From positions 1-64,000 of the forward strand of contig JAJZRG010000012.1 in assembly GCA_021802825.1 (NCBI GenBank): DNA of 64,000 bases. Direction: 5' to 3'. Numbering within the stretch: position 1 is the first letter of the stretch; each line of letters begins with the position of its first letter. Source of the stretch: Chloroflexota bacterium (GTDB lineage Bacteria > Chloroflexota > Limnocylindria > Limnocylindrales > CSP1-4). Made by a program: the position numbers and the translations under genes. Of the stretch, positions 4,396 to 13,652 are shown in pieces. The notes beneath the pieces were generated by a model, which searched no databases, was not told the origin of the DNA, and saw only the letters and a list, made by a program, of their open reading frames with translations.

Positions 4396-6153
4396 GTGGC
4401 CGTCGACGTCGCGAGGATCCTGACCGAGATCGACAGCGGGCGAACCCCGGCGGAGCTCGAGAGCCAGACCCTGGAGTTCAAGCAGGACAAGCGCCTGCCC
4501 GAGGACACCGAGCGGCTCATCGTCGAAGCCGCCGTGTGCTTCGCGAACGGCGCGGGCGGGACGATCGTGCTCGGCGTCGCCGATCGAGGGACAGGCCCGC
4601 AGGCGTTCCTGGGAACGTCGCTCGCGATCGACCAGCTCCGCCAGTCCGTCTACGCCTCGACGCAGCCGGGGCTGCTGGTCGAGGTCCAGGAGCTCATCCA
4701 TCAAGGGGCGCGGCTGCTCCTCATCCGCGTGCCCGAAGGGGTCGACGTCTACGCCGACTCGAAGGGGCGCCCATACCAGCGCATCGGCAACCAGTGCCAG
4801 CCGATGCCGGTCGCCGAGGCGACGAGGTTGCGCGAGGAGCGCCTCGGGCACGACTGGTCCGCCGAGGCATCGGATCGGGTGCCGGGCGACGTCTCGGCGG
4901 CGACCCTCGAAACGGTCAGGACCGTCCTGTCCGCCCTGCCCGACGACCGACGCCGCCTCGTGTCGCTGTCCGACCTCGACCTGCTCCGGGCGCTCGACCT
5001 TCTGGCGGGTGAGCGCCTGAACCGCGCCGGCACGCTCCTGCTGCTGCCGGCCGAGGCGGATCGGCCCCGGCTCGTGTACCAGTTCCGCCCGACGCCTGGC
5101 GGCGAGCCCACGTTCTCGGAACGCCTCGAGGGACCGCTCGTCTCGGCGTTCGCCCGGGTGATGGAGGTCGTGCGCACCCGGCTCAACAGCGCCCCCCTCA
5201 ACCTGCCCGACGGGCAGCAGATCCAGCTCCAGGACTTCCCGGAGCTGGCGGTCCGCGAGGCCATCGCCAACGGCCTCGTGCACCGCGACTACCGACTTCC
5301 CGGGCCCGTCGCCATCGAGCACTCGCCGGCCGTCTTCGCGGTCACGTCACCTGGGCCGCTCGTGGCGGGCGTCACGCCCGAGAACATCCTCACCCACCCG
5401 CCCAAGCCCCGGAACCGCACGCTGGCGAACGCAGCGCGCAAGCTCGGGTTCGCAGAGGAGTTCGGGCGCGGCATCGACCGGATCTACATCTCGCTGATCC
5501 GGGCCGGGAGGGGCCTCCCGGTCATCGAGAACGATCCGGGGCAGGTCGCAGTCCGCATGGTCGGGGGCGCGCCCAATGTGCACATCGCCCGGTTTGTAGC
5601 GTCGCTGCCCTCGGTCGAGCGCGACGACACCGACGCCCTGCTGGTCCTGTACCGCCTGTGCTCGACTCGGGTGGTCTCGCCGCCGACGATCGCGCCGCTC
5701 CTTCAGCGGTCGGAGGCCGAGGCCGCGACGATCCTCGGCCGGCTCGCGGTGGATCCGCCCGGGATGATCGAGCGGACGCGCCCGGTGCGGGCGGGTGCTG
5801 GGCCTGCCTACAGACTGTCGGGCCCCGCCATGGCCGCCCTCGGGCCGGCCGTGACGTACCAGGTGCGGAGCATCTCGGACACCGACAGAAAGGTCGTCGC
5901 CCACGTCGTGGAGTACGGGAAGATCACTAACCGGACGGTCCAGAACCTGTTCGACGTGACCGTGCACCCGGCGAACGCCATCATCGACGACCTCGTGCGC
6001 CGGGAGATTCTTGTCAAGACGTCCGTCCAACAGCGCGGACCCGGCGTGGAGTACGGACCGGGATCGAAGTTCCCGCATCGCGCCCGTGCCGCACGGAAGC
6101 GGCGGGGGTCGAAGGTGGACGACGCGACCCTGTGGGACGAGCAAGAGCCGTGA
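4396..6153 (+). CDS. Schlafen-like AlbA_2 / HATPase ATP-binding protein
   Basis: This 585-residue protein has an N-terminal AlbA_2 (Schlafen-like) nucleic-acid-binding domain: LEFKQ near residue 27 and [12 protein letters not shown] around 55-66. A GHKL-type C-terminal ATPase module follows, with [12 protein letters not shown] near 289-300 and FGRGIDRIY near 355-364. A helix-turn-helix-like tail covers about 480-560 ([21 protein letters not shown]). Genes of this class often sit inside type I restriction loci, but their role is not settled. The GTG start at 4396 has a GAGGGGA ribosome site just upstream. Its stop codon overlaps the GTG start of hsdR by 4 bp, so the two are co-translated. Confidence 0.85.
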
Positions 6154-9100
6154 CGACCTTCACCGAGTCGATCGTCGAGGAGGCGGCGCTCGCCGTCCTC
6201 GGCCGTCTGGGCTGGGCGGTCCTCCACGGCCCGGAGATCGCGGCCGGGATGGCGGCTGCCGAGCGCTCGGACCCCGGGTACCGCGACGTCATCCTCGAGC
6301 GGCGACTGCGGGCCGCGCTCGCGCGCCTGAACCCTGGGCTGCCGGTCAGCGCCGTCGAGGACGCGTTCCGCAAGCTCACGCGGGTGGCCGGGCCGACGCT
6401 CATCGAGCGCAACCGGGCACTCCACCGGATGCTCGTGGACGGCGTGACGGTGGAGTACCGCCGGCCGGACGGCTCGATCGCCGGCGCGCAGGCCCGGGTC
6501 GTCGACTACGAGCGGCCGGAGGCAAACGACTGGCTCGCGGTCAACCAGTTCACCGTCGTCGATGGCGGGCATGAGCGCCGGCCGGACGTCGTGCTGTTCC
6601 TCAACGGCCTGCCGATCGCGGTGATCGAGCTGAAGAACCCGGCCGACGAGCAGGCGACGATCCACACCGCGTACCGCCAGCTGGTCACGTACCAGGCCCA
6701 GATCCCCGCCCTCTTCGAGGCGAACGCGGTCCTGGTCACCTCCGACGGGACCACGGCCCGGATCGGCGCCCTGGGCGCGGGCGCGGAGTGGTTCAAGCCC
6801 TGGCGGACGATCGAGGGCACGGCCGATGCACCGCCGGCGATGCCGCAGCTCCGCGTGCTGCTCGAGGGCGTCTTCGAGCACCGCCGGTTCCTCGACCTGC
6901 TGCGCCACTTCGTCGTGTTCGAGGACGCGGGCGGCGGGGCGATCGCGAAGAAGATCGCCGGGTACCACCAGTTCCACGCGGTCAACGCCGCGGTCGAGGA
7001 GACGATCCGGGCGACCGGCGTGCTCTCGGAGCCGCACCTCCGCGCCGCCGAGGAGCGCGGCCGGTACGAGACGCCGTCCGGCCCAGGGGGTGAGCGCGGC
7101 GACCGGCGGGTCGGCGTCATCTGGCACACGCAGGGGTCGGGCAAGAGCCTGACCATGGCCTTCTACGCGGGGCGCATCGTCCTCGAGCCGGCGATGGCCA
7201 ACCCGACGCTCGTCGTGCTGACCGACCGCAACGACCTCGACGACCAGCTGTTCGGGACGTTCGCCCGCTGCCGCGACCTCCTGCGCCAGGAGCCGGTCCA
7301 GGCGCAGGACCGCGCGGACCTGCGCGCGAAGCTCGCCGTCGGCTCCGGCGGGGTCGTGTTCACGACGATCCAGAAGTTCTTCCCCGACGAGCGGGGCGAC
7401 GCGCACCCGGTCCTCTCGGACCGCCGGAACATCGTCGTGATCGCGGACGAGGCGCACCGGAGCCAGTACGACTTCATCGACGGCTTCGCGCGCCACCTGC
7501 GCGACGCACTGCCGGGCGCCTCGTTCATCGGCTTCACCGGCACCCCGATCGAGGCCGCCGACGCCAACACCCGCTCGGTGTTCGGCGACTACATCAGCGT
7601 CTACGACATCGAGCGGTCGGTCCGCGACGGCGCCACAGTCCCGATCTACTACGAGAGTCGGCTCGCGAAGCTCGCGCTTGCCGAGGCCGAGCGCCCCAGG
7701 ATCGACCCCGCCTTCGAGGAGGTCACCGAGGGCGAGGAGGTCGACCACAAGGAGCGGCTCAAGAGCCGCTGGGCGCAGCTCGAGGCCCTCGTCGGGGCCG
7801 AGCACCGGGTCCGCCTCGTCGCCGCCGACCTGGTCGCCCATTTCGAGGACCGCCTCGCGACGATGGACGGCAAGGCCATGGTCGTCGCGATGAGCCGGCG
7901 GATCGCGATCGACCTGTACCGAGAGATCGCCGCGCTCCGGCCCGAGTGGGTCGGGACGGGCGACGACGAAGGCGCGCTCAAGGTCGTGATGACCGGGTCG
8001 GCGTCGGACCCGCTCGACTGGCAGGACCACATCCGCAACAAGCCGCGGCGCGAGGCGCTCGCCGCCCGCTTCCGGGACCCTGCCGACCCGTTCGGGGTCG
8101 TGATCGTGCGCGACATGTGGCTGACCGGGTTCGACGCGCCGAGCCTCCACACGATGTACCTCGACAAGCCGATGCGGGGCCACGGGCTGATGCAGGCGAT
8201 CGCGCGGGTCAACCGGGTATTCCGCGACAAGCCGGGCGGGCTCGTCGTGGACTACCTGGGCATCGCCGACGAGCTGCGCAGGGCGCTCGCCGCGTACACG
8301 GAGTCCGGCGGGACGGGCAAGGCCGCGATCGACCAGGCCGAGGCCGTCGCCCTGATGCTCGAGAAGCACGAGGTCTGCGCGGGGCTGTTCCACGGCTTCG
8401 ACCACCGCGCCTGGGTGACGGGGGACGCTGAGGAGCGGCTCGCCCTGCTCCCGGGCGCGCAGGAGCACATCCTCGCCCAGGAGGACGGCAAGGCGCGCCT
8501 GCTCCAGGCTGTGACCGAGCTCTCGGCGGCGTTCGCGCTGTCCGTCCCGGCCGACGAGGCGATCGCGATCCGCGACGACGTCGGCTTCTACCAGGCCGTC
8601 CGCGCGGTGCTCGCCAAGAGCGTCACGGGTGAGCGGAAGACCGACGAGCAGCTCGACCACGCGATCCGCCAGATCGTGAGCCAGGCGATCGTGTCCGAGG
8701 AGGTCATCGACATCTTCGCCGCGGCCGGCCTGCGGAAGCCGGACATCTCGATCCTGTCCGACGAGTTCCTCGCCGACGTCCGGGGCCTGCCGCAGCGCAA
8801 CGTGGCCGTCGAGCTGCTGCGCAAGCTGCTCGCGGGCGAGATCAAGGCCCGCAGCCGGCGGAACGTCGTCCAGGCGCGCTCGTTCGCCGACCTCCTCGAG
8901 CAGGCCCTCCGCCGCTACCAGAACCGCGCGATCGAGACCGCGCAGGTCATCGAGGAGCTCATCGCGCTCGCCAGGGAGCTGCGGGCGGCGTCGGCCCGAG
9001 GGGAGCAGCTCGGCCTGACCGAGGACGAGCTCGCCTTCTACGACGCCCTCGGGACGAACGACAGCGCGGTCGCGGTCCTCGGCGAGCCCGAGCTCCTCGC

Positions 9101-9302
9101 AATCGCCCGGGAGCTCACCGAGCAGGTCCGCGCCAACGTCACGATCGACTGGACCGTGCGCGAGAACGTCCGCGCCCAACTCCGCGTGCTCGTGAAGCGC
9201 ATCCTGCGCAAGCACGGCTACCCGCCGGACAAGCAGGAGCGGGCGACGCAGCTCGTGCTCGAGCAGGCCGAGGTTCTCAGCGAGCTGTGGGCAGTCGCAT
9301 GA
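6150..9302 (+). CDS. hsdR: Type I restriction endonuclease motor/nuclease subunit HsdR
   Basis: HsdR is the ATP-dependent translocase and nuclease of the type I enzyme and works with HsdM and HsdS. It is 1050 residues long, which is normal. The PD-(D/E)xK nuclease appears as [10 protein letters not shown] followed by VIELKNPAD (lysine near residue 160). Walker A TQGSGKS is near 327-333, the DEAD-type box [11 protein letters not shown] near 431, and motif III GFTGTP near 461. GTG at 6150 overlaps the previous stop (GTGA). It yields the conserved start [14 protein letters not shown], so it is preferred over the GTG at 6132. All motifs are intact, so the enzyme should be active. Confidence 0.95.
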
Positions 9303-9358
9303 CGCGGCGCGGACAGCCCGAGATCGTCGTGCAGCGGATCCACTTCGAGGGTCGGTGA
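9299..9358 (+). pseudogene. Short coupled ORF after hsdR, possible truncated gene remnant
   Basis: ATG at 9299 overlaps the hsdR stop as ATGA and opens a 19-codon frame ending at 9358. The tight overlap is typical of a coupled downstream gene, yet the frame closes almost at once. It may be the first codons of an accessory gene lost when the locus was joined to the dnaG region, or a chance frame. The peptide is too short to assign to a family. Confidence 0.3.
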
Positions 9359-9500
9359 GTCCGTCCGGGGGCGCCAAGACATGGTGGGTGCTGGCGCTTG
9401 CACGACATCGTCACCGGGACAGGTCTGAGGACAGGTTCGCGCAAAGTCACAACGAACGCCGGGTCGCGACTCGCCGCGCCGAGCCCCCTAGACACGAGTT

Positions 9501-9516
9501 TGTCAACCCCTTGACA
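9501..9516. promoter_or_regulatory. Operator-like palindrome 1 upstream of dnaG
   Basis: TGTCAA-CCCC-TTGACA is a perfect inverted repeat with 6-bp arms. The same arms occur in the longer palindrome centred about 43 bp downstream, which suggests a two-site operator in front of the dnaG-rpoD unit. TTGACA also resembles a -35 hexamer, but no convincing -10 lies 16-18 bp further on. Confidence 0.5.
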
Positions 9517-9540
9517 TGGGGGTACAGTCCCCCGTCACGT

Positions 9541-9563
9541 GGCTTGTCAAGACTTGACAAGCC
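9541..9563. promoter_or_regulatory. Operator-like perfect palindrome 2 upstream of dnaG
   Basis: GGCTTGTCAAG, one central A, then CTTGACAAGCC make a perfect 11-bp-arm inverted repeat. The core repeats the TGTCAA/TTGACA arms of palindrome 1. It lies about 50 bp before the likely dnaG start at 9614, which supports treating the longer in-frame extension of dnaG as untranslated leader. Confidence 0.55.
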
Positions 9564-9613
9564 CGTACGTGTATCCGCCGGGGGCCGGCGGACAGCGGGG
9601 ATTGGAGCAGCGA

Positions 9614-11563
9614 TTGGCCGTCGGCGTCGTGGCCGAGATCAAGGGCCGCCTCCCCGTCGCGGACGTGGTTGGGGAGACCGTCCAGCTGAAGAAGGCTGGT
9701 ACCACCCTCAAGGGGCTGTGCCCGTTCCACGGCGAGAAGACCCCGTCCTTCGTGGTGACGCCCGCCCGCGACACCTGGCACTGCTTCGGCTGCGGCAAGC
9801 ACGGCGACATCTTCACGTTCCTCATGGAGCGCGACGGCCTGGCCTTCCCCGAGGCGCTCGCCCAGCTGGCCGCCCGGGCCGGCGTCGAGCTCGATGAGCG
9901 CACCAAGCGTGAGGATGCCCGCAATGCGCGCCTGCGCGAGGTCATGGAGGCGGCGATCGCCTTCTACCACGCGGTGCTGATGAGCTCGAAGCAGGGCGAG
10001 CCGGCCCGAGACTACCTGCGCGGGCGCGGCTTCACCGATGCGATCATCGAGAGGCAGCAGCTGGGCTGGGCGCCCGGCGGCTGGGACACACTGGCCCGAA
10101 ACCTGGCCCGCAAGCGCCAGGTCACGCCGCAGGAACTCCTGGACGCTGGCTTGGCGAGCCCCCGCCAGCGCGGCGGCGGCGTGTACGATCGCTTCCGCGA
10201 GCGCGTCATCTTCCCGATCCGCGACGCGAACGGCCACGCCGTGGGCCTCGGCGGAAGGATCCTGGGCAAGGAGGGGACGGACGAGGACGGCCGCGACCAC
10301 GGGCCCAAATACCTCAACTCGCCCGCGACCACCCTGTTCGACAAGAGCCGCACGCTGTACCTCATCGACCGCGCCAAGTCGGCCATCCGCAAGACCGGCC
10401 AGGCCGTCATCGTCGAGGGCTACACCGACGCGCTGATGGCCCACCAGGGCGGCTTCGAGAACGTCGTCGCCAGCCTGGGCACCGCGCTCACGCCCGGCCA
10501 GGTCGCCCTGATCACCCGCTACGCCAAGCGGATCGCGCTCGCGTACGACGTGGACGCGGCGGGCGAGAAGGCCGGCACCTTCGGCGCCACGGCACTCGAG
10601 GAGCTGATCCGCCAGTTGGCTCGCGACGACAGCGGCGTCGAGCTCGACGACGTGCGCGTCGTCCGGCTGCCCGAGGGCAAGGACCCCGACGAGGTGGTCC
10701 GCGACGAGCCCGACCGCTGGCGCGAGGAGGTCCGGACGGCCCGCCCCATCGTTGACCACCTGATCGACGTCCACGCGCGCGCCCACGACCTGCGCACGCC
10801 CGGCGGCCAGGCCCGCTTCGTGGACGCGGTGCTGCCGATCATCCGCAACCTCCCCAACCCGGTCATGCGCGACGCCTACCTCGCCCGCGTCCGCCAGATC
10901 AGCGGGGTGGAGGAGCGGACGCTGCTCGAGGCGATGCACCGCCGCCCGGACCGAGACGGCGGCCGACAGGACGGCCACGGCGGCCGGGACCGCTTCAGCG
11001 CCCAGGCGGTCACCGGCGCCGCCGACGCGCTGCCGGTCAACGACATCCTGCGCGGCGTCTCGCCCACCGAGCAGCGCCTGCTGCGCCTGGTCCTGCTCGT
11101 CCCCGAGGCGCACGACCAGCTGCTCGACGGCCTCGGCCCGGACCGCCTCCCGTCCCAAGTCGCCCGCGAGCTGTTCCGCGCCGTCGTTGAGTCGCGCGCC
11201 CCCGACGACCACGGTGTCCGTCCGGCGTGGTCCCTCTCGAAGGTGCTCGAGGGCACCGACCCCGAGAGCCGCGCCCTGGGCCAGGCGCTCGTCTCCCGCG
11301 AGGGCCCCAACCCGCGCGACCTCTCCGACCGCTCCCTGTCCTACGAGGTGGAGCGCCTGATCCTCGAGCTCGAGGACGCCGAGTGGCACGAGCGCTCGGC
11401 GTTCAACCACGACGCCACCGCCGAGGCCGAGCGCGACGGCGACCGTGCGGTCGTCGATCGCCTCCTGCAAGAGCGGCGCGAGCTCAACGAGCAGCGCCGG
11501 TCGCTCGACCGGCGCCGCAACGACACCCGCCTCCTCGGCCGAGCGGAGGTACCCGCCCGCTGA
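9614..11563 (+). CDS. dnaG: DNA primase
   Basis: DnaG makes RNA primers at the replication fork. The N-terminal zinc-binding domain is complete: CPFH with C36, then CFGCG with C57 and C60. The RNA-polymerase/TOPRIM core shows VIVEGYTD with E268 and AYDVDAAG with D312 and D314. The length (649 residues) is usual. Three starts are in frame: GTG 9539, TTG 9602 and TTG 9614. TTG 9614 is chosen because GGAG lies 6 bp upstream and the protein then begins close to the normal family start. GTG 9539 would translate through the palindrome. It is followed 97 bp later by rpoD in the same direction, an old macromolecular-synthesis pairing. Confidence 0.95.
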
Positions 11564-11660: not shown

Positions 11661-13652
11661 ATGACCGATCCCCTGGACAAGCAGCTCGTCGAGGCCGTGC
11701 TCACCGCCCGCCCGCGGCGGACGAAGCGCGAGACCGAAGAGGTCAGGCTGGCCTCGGCGCGCCCGCGCAAGGGTGGCCTGGCGGACGTGGGCGCCGACGG
11801 CCTGGCGCTGAGCGATGAGCCGGACGCTGACCTCGACGAGGACATCGATGCGGACGCGGAGCCCGACGCAGAGCTGCTGAGCGCCGAGGCCGACGAGCCG
11901 GGCGCGGCCGAGCTCTCGATCGAGCTGGTGGGTGAGGTGGCGCTGGAGGGCGTCCCGGTGCCGTCCGGCGTGGACGTCCCGGCGGGCCTCTCGGCGGCCG
12001 AGGTCGAGGAGCCGTCGGCCGAGGAGCTCGAGGCGCTCAACGCCGACATGATCGGGATCGACGACCCGGTCAGGATGTACCTCAAGGAGATCGGCAAGGT
12101 CGCCCTGCTCACCGCCGAGGAGGAGGTGGTCCTGGCCAAGGCCATCGAGCTCGGCGAGCAGATCATCGTCGAGCCCTGGAAGGCCGTCGTCTCGCTCCAC
12201 GAGTGGACGCTTCATGAGACCGAGCGCAAGACGCGCACCGCGAAGCCGCAGCACCGCCTGCCGTTCGGGCCTGAGACCCACCGCATGGTGGCCGACGGGA
12301 TCGCCGACCCGGCCGCCGCCGACCTCCTGACCGAGCCGCCCGACTTCCACCTGATCAAGGCCGGCAAGGACGCGCAGTCCGAGGGGACGCACGCCCTGCT
12401 CAAGGAGGCGCGCGCGCTGGTCAACGCCTACACCAGCGCGCCCACGGCCGAGCACTTCGTCACGCTGCTCGACTGGTCGTACCACTCGGTCCACAACGGT
12501 GACCTCGACTCGCGCGACAACGTCGGCCTGCGCGCCATCTACAACTGGACGCGCGACGACGTCGCCTTCCCGGCGCTCCAGCGCTGGATCGAGGCGGGCA
12601 ACGACGCCGAGCTGCTCAAGCGCATGGGCTTCGACCCCGAGGTCCCGCCGCAGACCAAGATGCGCGACCGCAAGGGCGAGATCGTCAAGATCGGCCGCGA
12701 CGCGCGCGAGCAGCTCACCTCGGCGAACCTGCGGCTCGTGGTCTCAATCGCCAAGAAGTACATCGGGCGCGGGATGTCGTTCCTGGACCTCATCCAGGAG
12801 GGCAACATCGGCCTGATCAGGGCGGTCGAGAAGTTCGACTTCGAGAAGGGCTTCAAGTTCTCCACCTACGCCACGTGGTGGATCCGCCAGGCGATCACGC
12901 GCGCGATCGCCGACCAGGCCCGCACCATCCGGATCCCGGTCCACATGGTGGAGACGATCAACCGACTCATCCGCGTCTCGCGCCAGCTGCTCCAGGACCT
13001 CGGCCGCGAGCCGACGGTCGAGGAGATCGCGATGGCGATGACGCTGGGCTCGGAGAACGCGAACAAGATCTTCGGCGCCGTCGGCGGCCGGGACAACATC
13101 CTCTCGTTCGAGATCCGGGGCGAGAAGGTTCCCATCCTGCGCCTCGGTCTGAGCGACCCGTCGCTGGTGTCGATGGAGGAGCTCGACGAGGAGGGGTTCG
13201 TCGTCCAGCACCACGGCCGCGACCTGGACATCGAGCTGCCCAAGAAGAAGGAGCGCGAGTCCGAGGCGGTCGTCGTGGTCACGCCCGAGAAGGTCCGCGA
13301 GATCATCAAGGTCAGCCAGGAGCCGGTCTCGCTCGAGACGCCCATCGGCGAGGAGGAGGACTCGCACCTCGGCGACTTCATCGAGGACCGCGGTGCGCTG
13401 GCCCCGGCCGAGGCGGCGTCGCACCAGCTGCTCAAGGAGCAGGTCGAGGCGGTGCTCGACTCTCTGACCGGCCGCGAGCGGCGCGTGCTCCAGCTCCGGT
13501 TCGGCCTCGAGGACGGGCGCGCCCGGACCCTCGAGGAGGTGGGCAAGGAATTCAACGTGACCCGGGAGCGGATCCGCCAGATCGAGGCGAAGGCGCTGCG
13601 CAAGCTGCGCCACCCGTCGCGGAGCCGCAAGCTCAAGGACTACCTCGAGTAG
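11661..13652 (+). CDS. rpoD: Primary sigma factor RpoD (sigma-70) with insertion in region 3
   Basis: This is the housekeeping sigma factor, 663 residues long. An acidic N-terminal stretch precedes region 1.2 ([14 protein letters not shown]). A long non-conserved segment follows, then region 2 ([34 protein letters not shown]). Region 4 closes the protein ([18 protein letters not shown]). The oddity lies in region 3: after [14 protein letters not shown], about 80 residues intervene before [15 protein letters not shown]. Standard RpoD proteins have only two or three residues there. The insert is at about residues 461-540 and is charged, with a KKK cluster. ATG 11661 has GGAGG about 10 bp upstream. 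An upstream in-frame extension overlaps dnaG and is rejected. Confidence 0.95.

What the first reader, a model, noticed from the sequence alone, without database searches (positions are those of the whole stretch)
9501..9563. Two matching palindromes control the dnaG-rpoD unit
TGTCAA-N4-TTGACA and GGCTTGTCAAG-A-CTTGACAAGCC share arms and are about 43 bp (four helical turns) apart. A dedicated operator in front of primase and the primary sigma factor is unusual and could link replication and transcription to a stress or cell-cycle regulator.
Basis: partly seen in the sequence, partly recalled or inferred. Interest (0 to 1): 0.5.

Follow-up and report, generated by a model that had tools for sequence, protein, structure and literature searches.

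The report
Private switch of sigma-factor genes
A family of uncultured soil and sediment bacteria carries, in front of the genes for its main transcription factor and its DNA primase and almost nowhere else that was found, a strictly conserved set of DNA sites and an RNA hairpin, which looks like a private control switch for the two machines that copy and read the genome.

Summary
The genome is a Chloroflexota MAG of class Limnocylindria, family CSP1-4. In that family the second palindrome (9541-9563) precedes dnaG in all 82 loci whose upstream sequence can be read (3 of 85 end at a contig end or an assembly gap), and 19 further RpoD-type sigma genes. It lies just inside the predicted transcript. 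Its outer pairs change together on the tree, so it is probably also a 5'-end RNA hairpin. Its hexamer TTGACA/TGTCAA recurs 167 times in 77 promoters (1.9 expected), on one face of the helix, with its own flank (TTGACAnG) and, but for one, no -10 at the right distance. That points to a DNA-binding regulator in addition to the hairpin. The first palindrome is mainly the -35 region plus a half-site and is seldom conserved as a palindrome. LexA is excluded. In 50 of 85 dnaG promoters, not the window's own, there is also a CsoR-type (copper-sensor) box like that before csoR. The regulator, the sign of control, the transcription start and the hairpin's job are inferred. I call it a new, dedicated control module of the macromolecular-synthesis operon with an unidentified regulator.

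The parts
9500..9528 (+). predicted sigma-70-type promoter: -35 TTGTCA (9500-9505), 17-bp spacer, -10 TACAGT (9523-9528)
   Evidence: 1 found, 0.1 expected in shuffles; the -10 region is moderately conserved in the anchored family alignment
9501..9516 (.). first palindrome TGTCAA-CCCC-TTGACA: two half-sites, the left one inside the -35 element
   Evidence: kept as a palindrome in 7 of 85 loci; a TGTCAA at -43/-44 in 28 of 75 leaders
9541..9563 (.). second palindrome GGCTTGTCAAG-A-CTTGACAAGCC; core 9545-9559; predicted 5'-end mRNA hairpin (10 bp, 3-nt loop)
9564..9581 (+). conserved tail after the hairpin (family consensus about CCnTAGnCATGTCCGG)
   Evidence: role unknown; by my own arithmetic not in helical phase with the half-sites
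9574..9592 (+). second, GC-rich hairpin predicted in the leader RNA of the window; sequence not conserved in the family
   Evidence: (fold of 9534-9625, z -2.74)
9614..11563 (+). dnaG (primase), TTG start, GGAG at 9605-9608
   Evidence: TIGR01391, 389.5 bits
11661..13652 (+). rpoD (primary sigma factor), start inferred at MTDPLDKQ

Best explanation
The region is a two-layer control module dedicated to genes of RpoD-type sigma factors (dnaG-rpoD, and a separate second rpoD-like gene). Layer 1, DNA: a sequence-specific protein binds half-sites (C/A)TTGACA-n-G that sit on one face of the helix over the -35 region, the -35/-10 spacer and the first transcribed bases. From these positions it most likely represses, and from the lack of other sites it is most likely dedicated to these promoters. 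Layer 2, RNA: the palindrome at 9541-9563 is transcribed as the 5'-terminal hairpin of the mRNA. It probably tunes mRNA stability or early elongation, or is itself read by the regulator. Shown here: conservation, near-uniqueness, phasing, the distinct flank, joint change of the outer pairs, and presence before two kinds of sigma gene. Inferred: the transcription start (about 9535-9538), repression, the regulator, and what the hairpin does.
For: All 82 of 85 dnaG upstream regions that can be read have TGTCAA-Nn-TTGACA: 77 as TGTCAAGN(C/G)TTGACA in the alignment, L046 likewise beside an assembly gap, and four with a 4- or 5-base centre. L085 and L089 end at contig ends, and L041 has a 100-N gap there. 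The core is found in 78 of 126 order genomes, 1-2 copies each, and the reversed control 0 times. Direct repeats TGTCAAGN3-6TGTCAAG occur in 12 of 107 genomes, at dnaG except for one tandem array in G059; the reversed control gave 1. 167 half-sites in 77 promoters against 1.9 in shuffles; only 1 of 167 has TANNNT 16-18 bp on in its own direction. Phase: R 0.67 over 44 distinct arrangements against at most 0.294 in 2000 random placements. Flank: G at +7 in 126 of 167 against 6 of 29 ordinary TTGACA promoters. Hairpin: 99.3% of cells paired, 46 cells changed on both sides, 0 of 500 shuffles reach any measure (57 of 81 sequences, thinned by hand). On the tree position -1 changes 16 times, +15 15 times and the pair only 17 times. 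Pair probability over 0.9 in 71 of 77 leaders. The 15 further full-length model hits that I fetched precede RpoD-type genes, as do L107, L155, L158 and L305; all 19 fold, at 20 to 24 nt.
Against: No regulator was found. TTGACA is also the ordinary -35 hexamer of this organism (41 TTGACA-N16-18-TANNNT against 0 in the reversed control), and 45 of the 167 half-sites lie in the -35 zone. The joint change of outer pairs could in part come from palindrome-correcting template switches in DNA, and the tree tool's own sign tests had too few pairs to reach 0.05. In six of 77 leaders the hairpin probability is 0.9 or less, the lowest 0.0008. In L087 the centre is 5 nt and the outer pairs are broken. Two further RpoD-like genes lack the element (L306, L307). 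In second sigma genes the spacing of the two half-sites varies by 4 bp, which a rigid protein dimer would not bear. Nothing was measured.
Confidence: 0.58

Rival explanations
1. RNA only: the palindrome works solely as a 5'-end mRNA hairpin, and the upstream TTGACA/TGTCAA are ordinary -35 elements of overlapping promoters.
For: Joint changes of outer pairs; stem kept while centre length varies in second sigma genes and in L015, L023, L068; the predicted hairpin starts within a few bases of the predicted start (inferred); TTGACA is the normal -35 hexamer.
Against: Only 1 of 167 half-sites has a TANNNT at 16-18 bp in its own direction, 84 of 167 face the other way, and they carry a flank (+7 G) that ordinary promoters lack. 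The six inner pairs never vary in 57 leaders; a stem alone would let them covary.
Confidence: 0.2
2. Autogenous sigma control: RpoD itself (free, or as holoenzyme) binds the surplus -35 hexamers of its own promoter and of its paralogue's, and blocks it.
For: The half-site core is exactly the -35 hexamer used in this genome. The element precedes sigma genes and the sigma operon. Both sigmas keep region 4. A sigma factor acting as a direct repressor has a precedent, sigma-E of Streptomyces (PMC10771440, passages read).
Against: Half-sites have their own flank, unlike ordinary -35s. Housekeeping sigmas carry an autoinhibitory domain against DNA binding without core, as that paper says. Two RpoD-like genes lack the element.
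Confidence: 0.15
3. SOS control by LexA, as at the E. coli rpsU-dnaG-rpoD operon (recalled).
For: Same operon; lexA is present in 10 of 11 genomes searched.
Against: 10 of 10 lexA loci carry a GAACN4GTTC SOS box before the gene, but only 1 of 85 dnaG upstream regions has one; the lexA upstream regions hold no TGTCAA and at most one TTGACA.
Confidence: 0.01
4. The whole module is CsoR control: the CsoR-like copper sensor is the regulator and the TTGACA sites are secondary.
For: A TACYCCNNNGGRGTA box (at most 1 mismatch) in 50 of 85 dnaG upstream regions against 0.2 in shuffles, and in 6 of 18 second sigma promoters; the same box before 15 of 18 csoR genes; it fits the published TAC-X9-GTA rule (PMC3902906, passages).
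Against: The dnaG promoters of g1 (the window's genus), g6, g14, g15, g17, g19, g22 and g26 lack the box within 1 mismatch but keep the palindrome. csoR loci with the box have no TTGACA/TGTCAA arrays.
Confidence: 0.05

Closest known systems
[quoted passage not shown] coli and its Gram-positive versions (dnaG-sigA)
   Same: Primase and primary sigma factor in one unit, under special control of transcription (PMC2824700, passages read; the LexA site of E. coli is recalled).
   Different: No SOS box in 84 of 85 dnaG upstream regions; a family-specific phased array and 5' hairpin, shared with second sigma genes.
CsoR/RicR-type copper-sensing operators (TAC-X9-GTA, G-tracts)
   Same: Box TACYCCNNNGGRGTA in 50 of 85 dnaG upstream regions of the family and before csoR.
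   Different: Absent from the window's own dnaG promoter. CsoR control of primase or of the primary sigma factor is not known to me; no literature search of mine joined CsoR with dnaG or rpoD.
Phased direct-repeat operators of OmpR/PhoB-type response regulators (11-bp period; recalled)
   Same: TGTCAA half-sites repeated at about 11 bp on one face in some genera.
   Different: Both orientations occur, and a 10-bp inverted pair is the invariant core; no response regulator was linked here.
5'-terminal stabilising mRNA hairpins (ompA type; recalled)
   Same: Hairpin within a few bases of the predicted start.
   Different: The inner stem is invariant in sequence and coincides with a pair of DNA half-sites.

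Membership tests
LexA/SOS operator | SOS box of this organism (GAACN4GTTC) in the promoter | tested here: not met
   10 of 10 lexA loci have it, 1 of 85 dnaG upstream regions (L063), not the window's
CsoR-type operator | TAC-X9-GTA with G-tracts, as before csoR | tested here: not met
   Not in the window's own dnaG promoter (best 4 mismatches); met in 50 of 85 dnaG upstream regions of the family with at most 1 mismatch
Known structured RNA (Rfam) | Match to a curated family | tested here: not met
   Window 9000-10000: one sub-threshold match elsewhere; six loci with the element: none
Base-paired RNA element | Compensatory changes keeping a stem | tested here: met
   broken outer pairs in L087
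dnaG-rpoD operon (macromolecular synthesis operon) | dnaG followed by rpoD behind one promoter | tested here: met
   co-transcription itself not testable here
OmpR-type response-regulator site | Binding by a response regulator | not testable with these tools
   No binding data
Sigma autoregulation | RpoD binds its own promoter's extra hexamers | not testable with these tools
   Sequence is compatible but the flank differs

The most novel reading that the evidence does not exclude
The primary sigma factor controls its own supply: RpoD and its paralogue bind an array of surplus -35 hexamers placed on one helical face of their own promoters, with the same sequence folded again as a 5' hairpin in their mRNA. 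In many genera a copper or thiol sensor of the CsoR family is wired into the same promoter, so that primase and the housekeeping sigma factor answer to both sigma level and metal stress.
Probability: 0.12. Interest if true: 0.82.

Novelty: new variant of a known kind. Interest (0 to 1): 0.6.

Why it matters
How bacteria set the amount of their housekeeping sigma factor and primase is little known outside a few model species. Here is a control element that appears private to those genes, kept through a whole family of uncultured soil and sediment bacteria, with a DNA layer and an RNA layer that can be separated by compensatory mutations. In many genera it is joined to a CsoR-type box, which would tie primase and sigma to metal or thiol stress. 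It gives a short, testable DNA bait for an unknown regulator.

Tried and rejected
LexA was rejected: SOS boxes lie before lexA, not before dnaG. Chance was rejected. A scattered genome-wide operator was rejected. A known Rfam element was not found. A terminator was not found in 9200-9800. A promoter read leftwards from the half-sites was rejected: 1 of 167 half-sites has TANNNT at 16-18 bp in its own direction. An upstream reading frame through the hairpin was set aside: the frame is open in the window but stopped by TAG in many g12 leaders (read by eye). A third half-site in the tail (TGTCCGG) was set aside because by my arithmetic it lies on the other face of the helix. The literature searches listed no paper whose title or shown abstract describes this element; none of them joined CsoR with dnaG or rpoD. 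Papers PMC13212565, PMC10771440, PMC2824700, PMC11077062 and PMC3902906 were seen in passages only, the rest as search listings. The regulator was not found: family-wide searches for the upstream box and for direct repeats gave the dnaG and second-sigma loci, one tandem array (G059) and one unclear contig end (G089).

Mended on re-check. G031 was first taken as lacking the element; its sequence is a 100-N assembly gap at that place, so it is no counter-example. L046 was first counted with an altered centre; it has the exact core beside a 2-N gap. Only one dnaG upstream region of the sister family was read (L310), not two.

Limits of the counts. Listings were cut, so further copies may be missed; one search used stricter filters. 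A2 and model R1 use 57 of 81 sequences, thinned by hand; alignment A1 (all 81) was not used for pair counts. CsoR genes were sought in 22 chosen genomes, RpoD genes in 20. Eight of the 85 dnaG upstream regions are not in the 77-row alignment: L015, L023, L068, L087 (other centre), L046 (beside a gap), L041 (gap), L085 and L089 (contig ends). The general box TACYCCNNNGGRGTA was not counted genome-wide.

Full report
WHAT IS THERE. The two palindromes are exact and at the stated coordinates. Neither is expected by chance in the window. In the 3.93-Mb genome the second has no other copy within 2 mismatches (two places with 3) and the first none within 1. They lie between an hsdR-type gene (6132-9302) and dnaG (9614-11563, TTG start), which is followed by rpoD. 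The only promoter-like site in 9200-9800 is TTGTCA-17-TACAGT at 9500-9528. The first palindrome therefore overlaps the -35 element, and the second (9541-9563) begins 12 bases after the -10, that is, just inside the predicted transcript.

WHICH ORGANISM. A scan of named genomes with the palindrome gave 79 loci, most of them Chloroflexi MAGs, among them 'Chloroflexi bacterium CSP1-4'. That contig has the same length (32,043) as contig C30 of G027, a member of the window's family in the unnamed set. The family is therefore taken to be CSP1-4 of class Limnocylindria, sister to Limnocylindraceae (PMC13212565, passages).

CONSERVATION. DnaG was found in 91 of 107 family genomes, and an upstream region was taken for 85. 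Seventy-seven have TGTCAAGN(C/G)TTGACA. L046 has it too, beside a 2-N gap that hides the start of dnaG. Four have the same hexamers with a 4- or 5-base centre (L015, L023, L068, L087). The other three cannot be read: L085 and L089 end at contig ends 94 and 148 nt upstream, and L041 (G031) has a 100-N gap there. So 82 of 82 readable loci have it. Outside the family, 0 of 19 genomes of the other family of the order have the core, and the covariance model R1 found none in the 70 class genomes outside the family (86 of 177 match, all in the family, stricter filters). The one dnaG upstream region of that other family that I read (L310, 334 nt) has a single TTGACA and no palindrome; L309 holds only the end of dnaG and rpoD.

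THE FIRST PALINDROME is not the conserved thing. A TGTCAA-N4-6-TTGACA at about -44 is seen in 7 of 85 loci (L005, L006, L007, L009, L017, L020, L087). What is often kept is a TGTCAA at -43/-44 (28 of 75 leaders with enough upstream sequence), which is at once the -35 element TTGTCA and a half-site.

DNA LAYER. In the 105 bp upstream of the 77 palindromes there are 167 TTGACA/TGTCAA hexamers against 1.9 after shuffling; every promoter has at least one and 73 have two or more. They lie at about whole helical turns from the palindrome: R 0.86 at 10.75 bp for the TGTCAA orientation but only 0.53 for the TTGACA orientation, and R 0.67 over 44 distinct arrangements against at most 0.294 in 2000 random placements. 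Only 45 lie in the -35 zone, and only 1 of 167 has TANNNT 16-18 bp on in its own direction, so they are not a row of ordinary promoters. Their flank, G at +7 in 126 of 167 and A at +6 in 88 of 167, differs from ordinary promoters of the window's genome (6 of 29 and 2 of 29; 29 of the 30 loci given for the 41 places). The hexamer itself equals the ordinary -35 (41 places against 0 in the control). Direct repeats of the half-site occur in 12 of 107 genomes, at dnaG leaders apart from one tandem array in G059; the reversed control gave 1.

RNA LAYER. The outer pairs of the palindrome are of several kinds. The pair at -1/+15 is C-G 36, G-C 17, T-A 16, T-G 6, T-C 2; the pair at -3/+17 is G-C 58, C-G 15, others 4. 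On a DnaG tree the two sides of the first pair change 16 and 15 times, but the pair as a unit only 17 times, so nearly all changes are double. The tool's sign tests on well-supported branches had too few pairs to reach 0.05. On 57 of the 81 collected sequences 99.3% of cells pair, with 46 double changes and 0 of 500 shuffles reaching the observed values. The hairpin has probability over 0.9 in 71 of 77 leaders, the lowest being 0.0008. In L087 the outer pairs are broken. The six inner pairs never vary in the 57, as expected if they are also DNA half-sites. A tail of about 18 bases after the hairpin is conserved too; its role is unknown.

SECOND SIGMA GENES. Model R1 gave further full-length hits. 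The 15 that I fetched, one of them in the window's own genome (G000:C75:14509-14566), all precede a gene that I recognised as RpoD-type from its sequence; the RpoD model confirms it for the seven of these genomes that were searched (G000, G009, G013, G015, G023, G024, G026). So do L107, L155 and L158 and L305. In G001, G008 and G010 dnaG itself was not found, so 'second' is an inference there. The protein in the window's genome is 45% and 60% identical to the window's RpoD over the two aligned stretches, with regions 1.2, 2, 3 and 4. In these 19 the stem GGCGTGTC...GACACGCC is kept, but the element is 20 to 24 nt long, which suits a hairpin and not a rigid protein dimer. Two other RpoD-like genes (L306, L307) lack the element.

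A CsoR-TYPE BOX IN RELATIVES. Just upstream, many dnaG promoters carry TACYCCNNNGGRGTA, often with TGTCAA or TTGACA beside it. With at most one mismatch it is in 50 of 85 upstream regions against 0.2 in shuffles, at fixed places (-50, -58/-59, -70 to -74), and in 6 of 18 second sigma promoters; it is not in the window's own dnaG promoter. With its GTCAA flank it was found in 35 of 107 genomes, at dnaG or second sigma genes except for one unclear contig end (G089:C186). The same box stands upstream of 15 of 18 main csoR-like genes of the family. Those proteins keep a Cys-x24-His-x3-Cys spacing (9 aligned), match the RicR model below its curated cut-off (3 tested) and match solved CsoR chains (1 tested). 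The box fits the published TAC-X9-GTA rule for CsoR operators (PMC3902906, passages). The two do not always go together: g17 and g19 lack it at both places, g9 has it at dnaG but not at csoR, and g1 and g6 have it at csoR but not at dnaG.

MECHANISM. The best-supported reading is a promoter-leader module private to RpoD-type sigma genes: an unknown protein binds phased TTGACAnG half-sites over the promoter and start region, most likely as a repressor, and the same palindrome is read again as a 5'-terminal hairpin. Binding, its sign, the start site and the hairpin's job are inferences. A sigma factor as its own repressor is possible, given that the hexamer is its own recognition site and that sigma-E of Streptomyces can repress (PMC10771440, passages), but the flank argues for another protein. 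LexA is excluded by sequence.

NOVELTY. The operon and special control at it are known (PMC2824700, passages). The element is not in Rfam, and none of my searches listed a paper that describes it. I therefore call it a new variant of a known kind, with an unusual degree of dedication and two superposed layers.

Noticed in passing
dnaG and second rpoD promoters of relatives (for example L042, L029, L231, L240); csoR loci L373-L394: A CsoR-type box (TACYCCNNNGGRGTA, at most 1 mismatch) in 50 of 85 dnaG upstream regions of the family and before 15 of 18 csoR-like genes; it suggests copper or thiol control of primase and primary sigma factor in many genera, not in the window's own copy.
   Followed up: partly
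window about 13038-13280: RpoD of the window has an insertion of about 75 residues inside sigma region 3 that the second RpoD of the same genome lacks; the RpoD model also breaks in two in G007 and G009.
   Followed up: no
lexA loci L362-L371: lexA of this family carries a canonical SOS box GAACN4GTTC before the gene in 10 of 10 loci.
   Followed up: yes
csoR loci, for example L385 (box 1393-1407, ATG 1420): The csoR box seems to overlap a -10 (GGGGTATCAT or GGGGTATGAT) with an ATG about 10 bases on, so the csoR mRNA may be leaderless and autorepressed (read).
   Followed up: no
L144 about 2082 (G009:C2): An exact core palindrome between what look by eye like upp and a Mu-like transposase gene, without the conserved tail.
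   Followed up: no
L120, L128, L178: Contigs binned as Sulfotelmatobacter, Actinobacteria and a g1 genome carry dnaG leaders of CSP1-4 type; probably mis-binned (not tested).
   Followed up: no
L096, L119, L137: The relaxed palindrome also hits Leptolyngbya, Ideonella (two copies about 2.8 kb apart) and an Elusimicrobium bin, in other contexts.
   Followed up: no
G059:C319:2092-2138: A tandem 10-bp repeat TGTCAAGTSG, the only half-site array found outside dnaG leaders.
   Followed up: no
L071, L077, L078, L082 (genus g19): Two copies of the core palindrome 139-150 bp apart upstream of dnaG.
   Followed up: no
window 4396-9302: An hsdR-type type I restriction gene sits directly upstream of dnaG, preceded by a 585-aa ORF without an NCBIfam match.
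   Followed up: no
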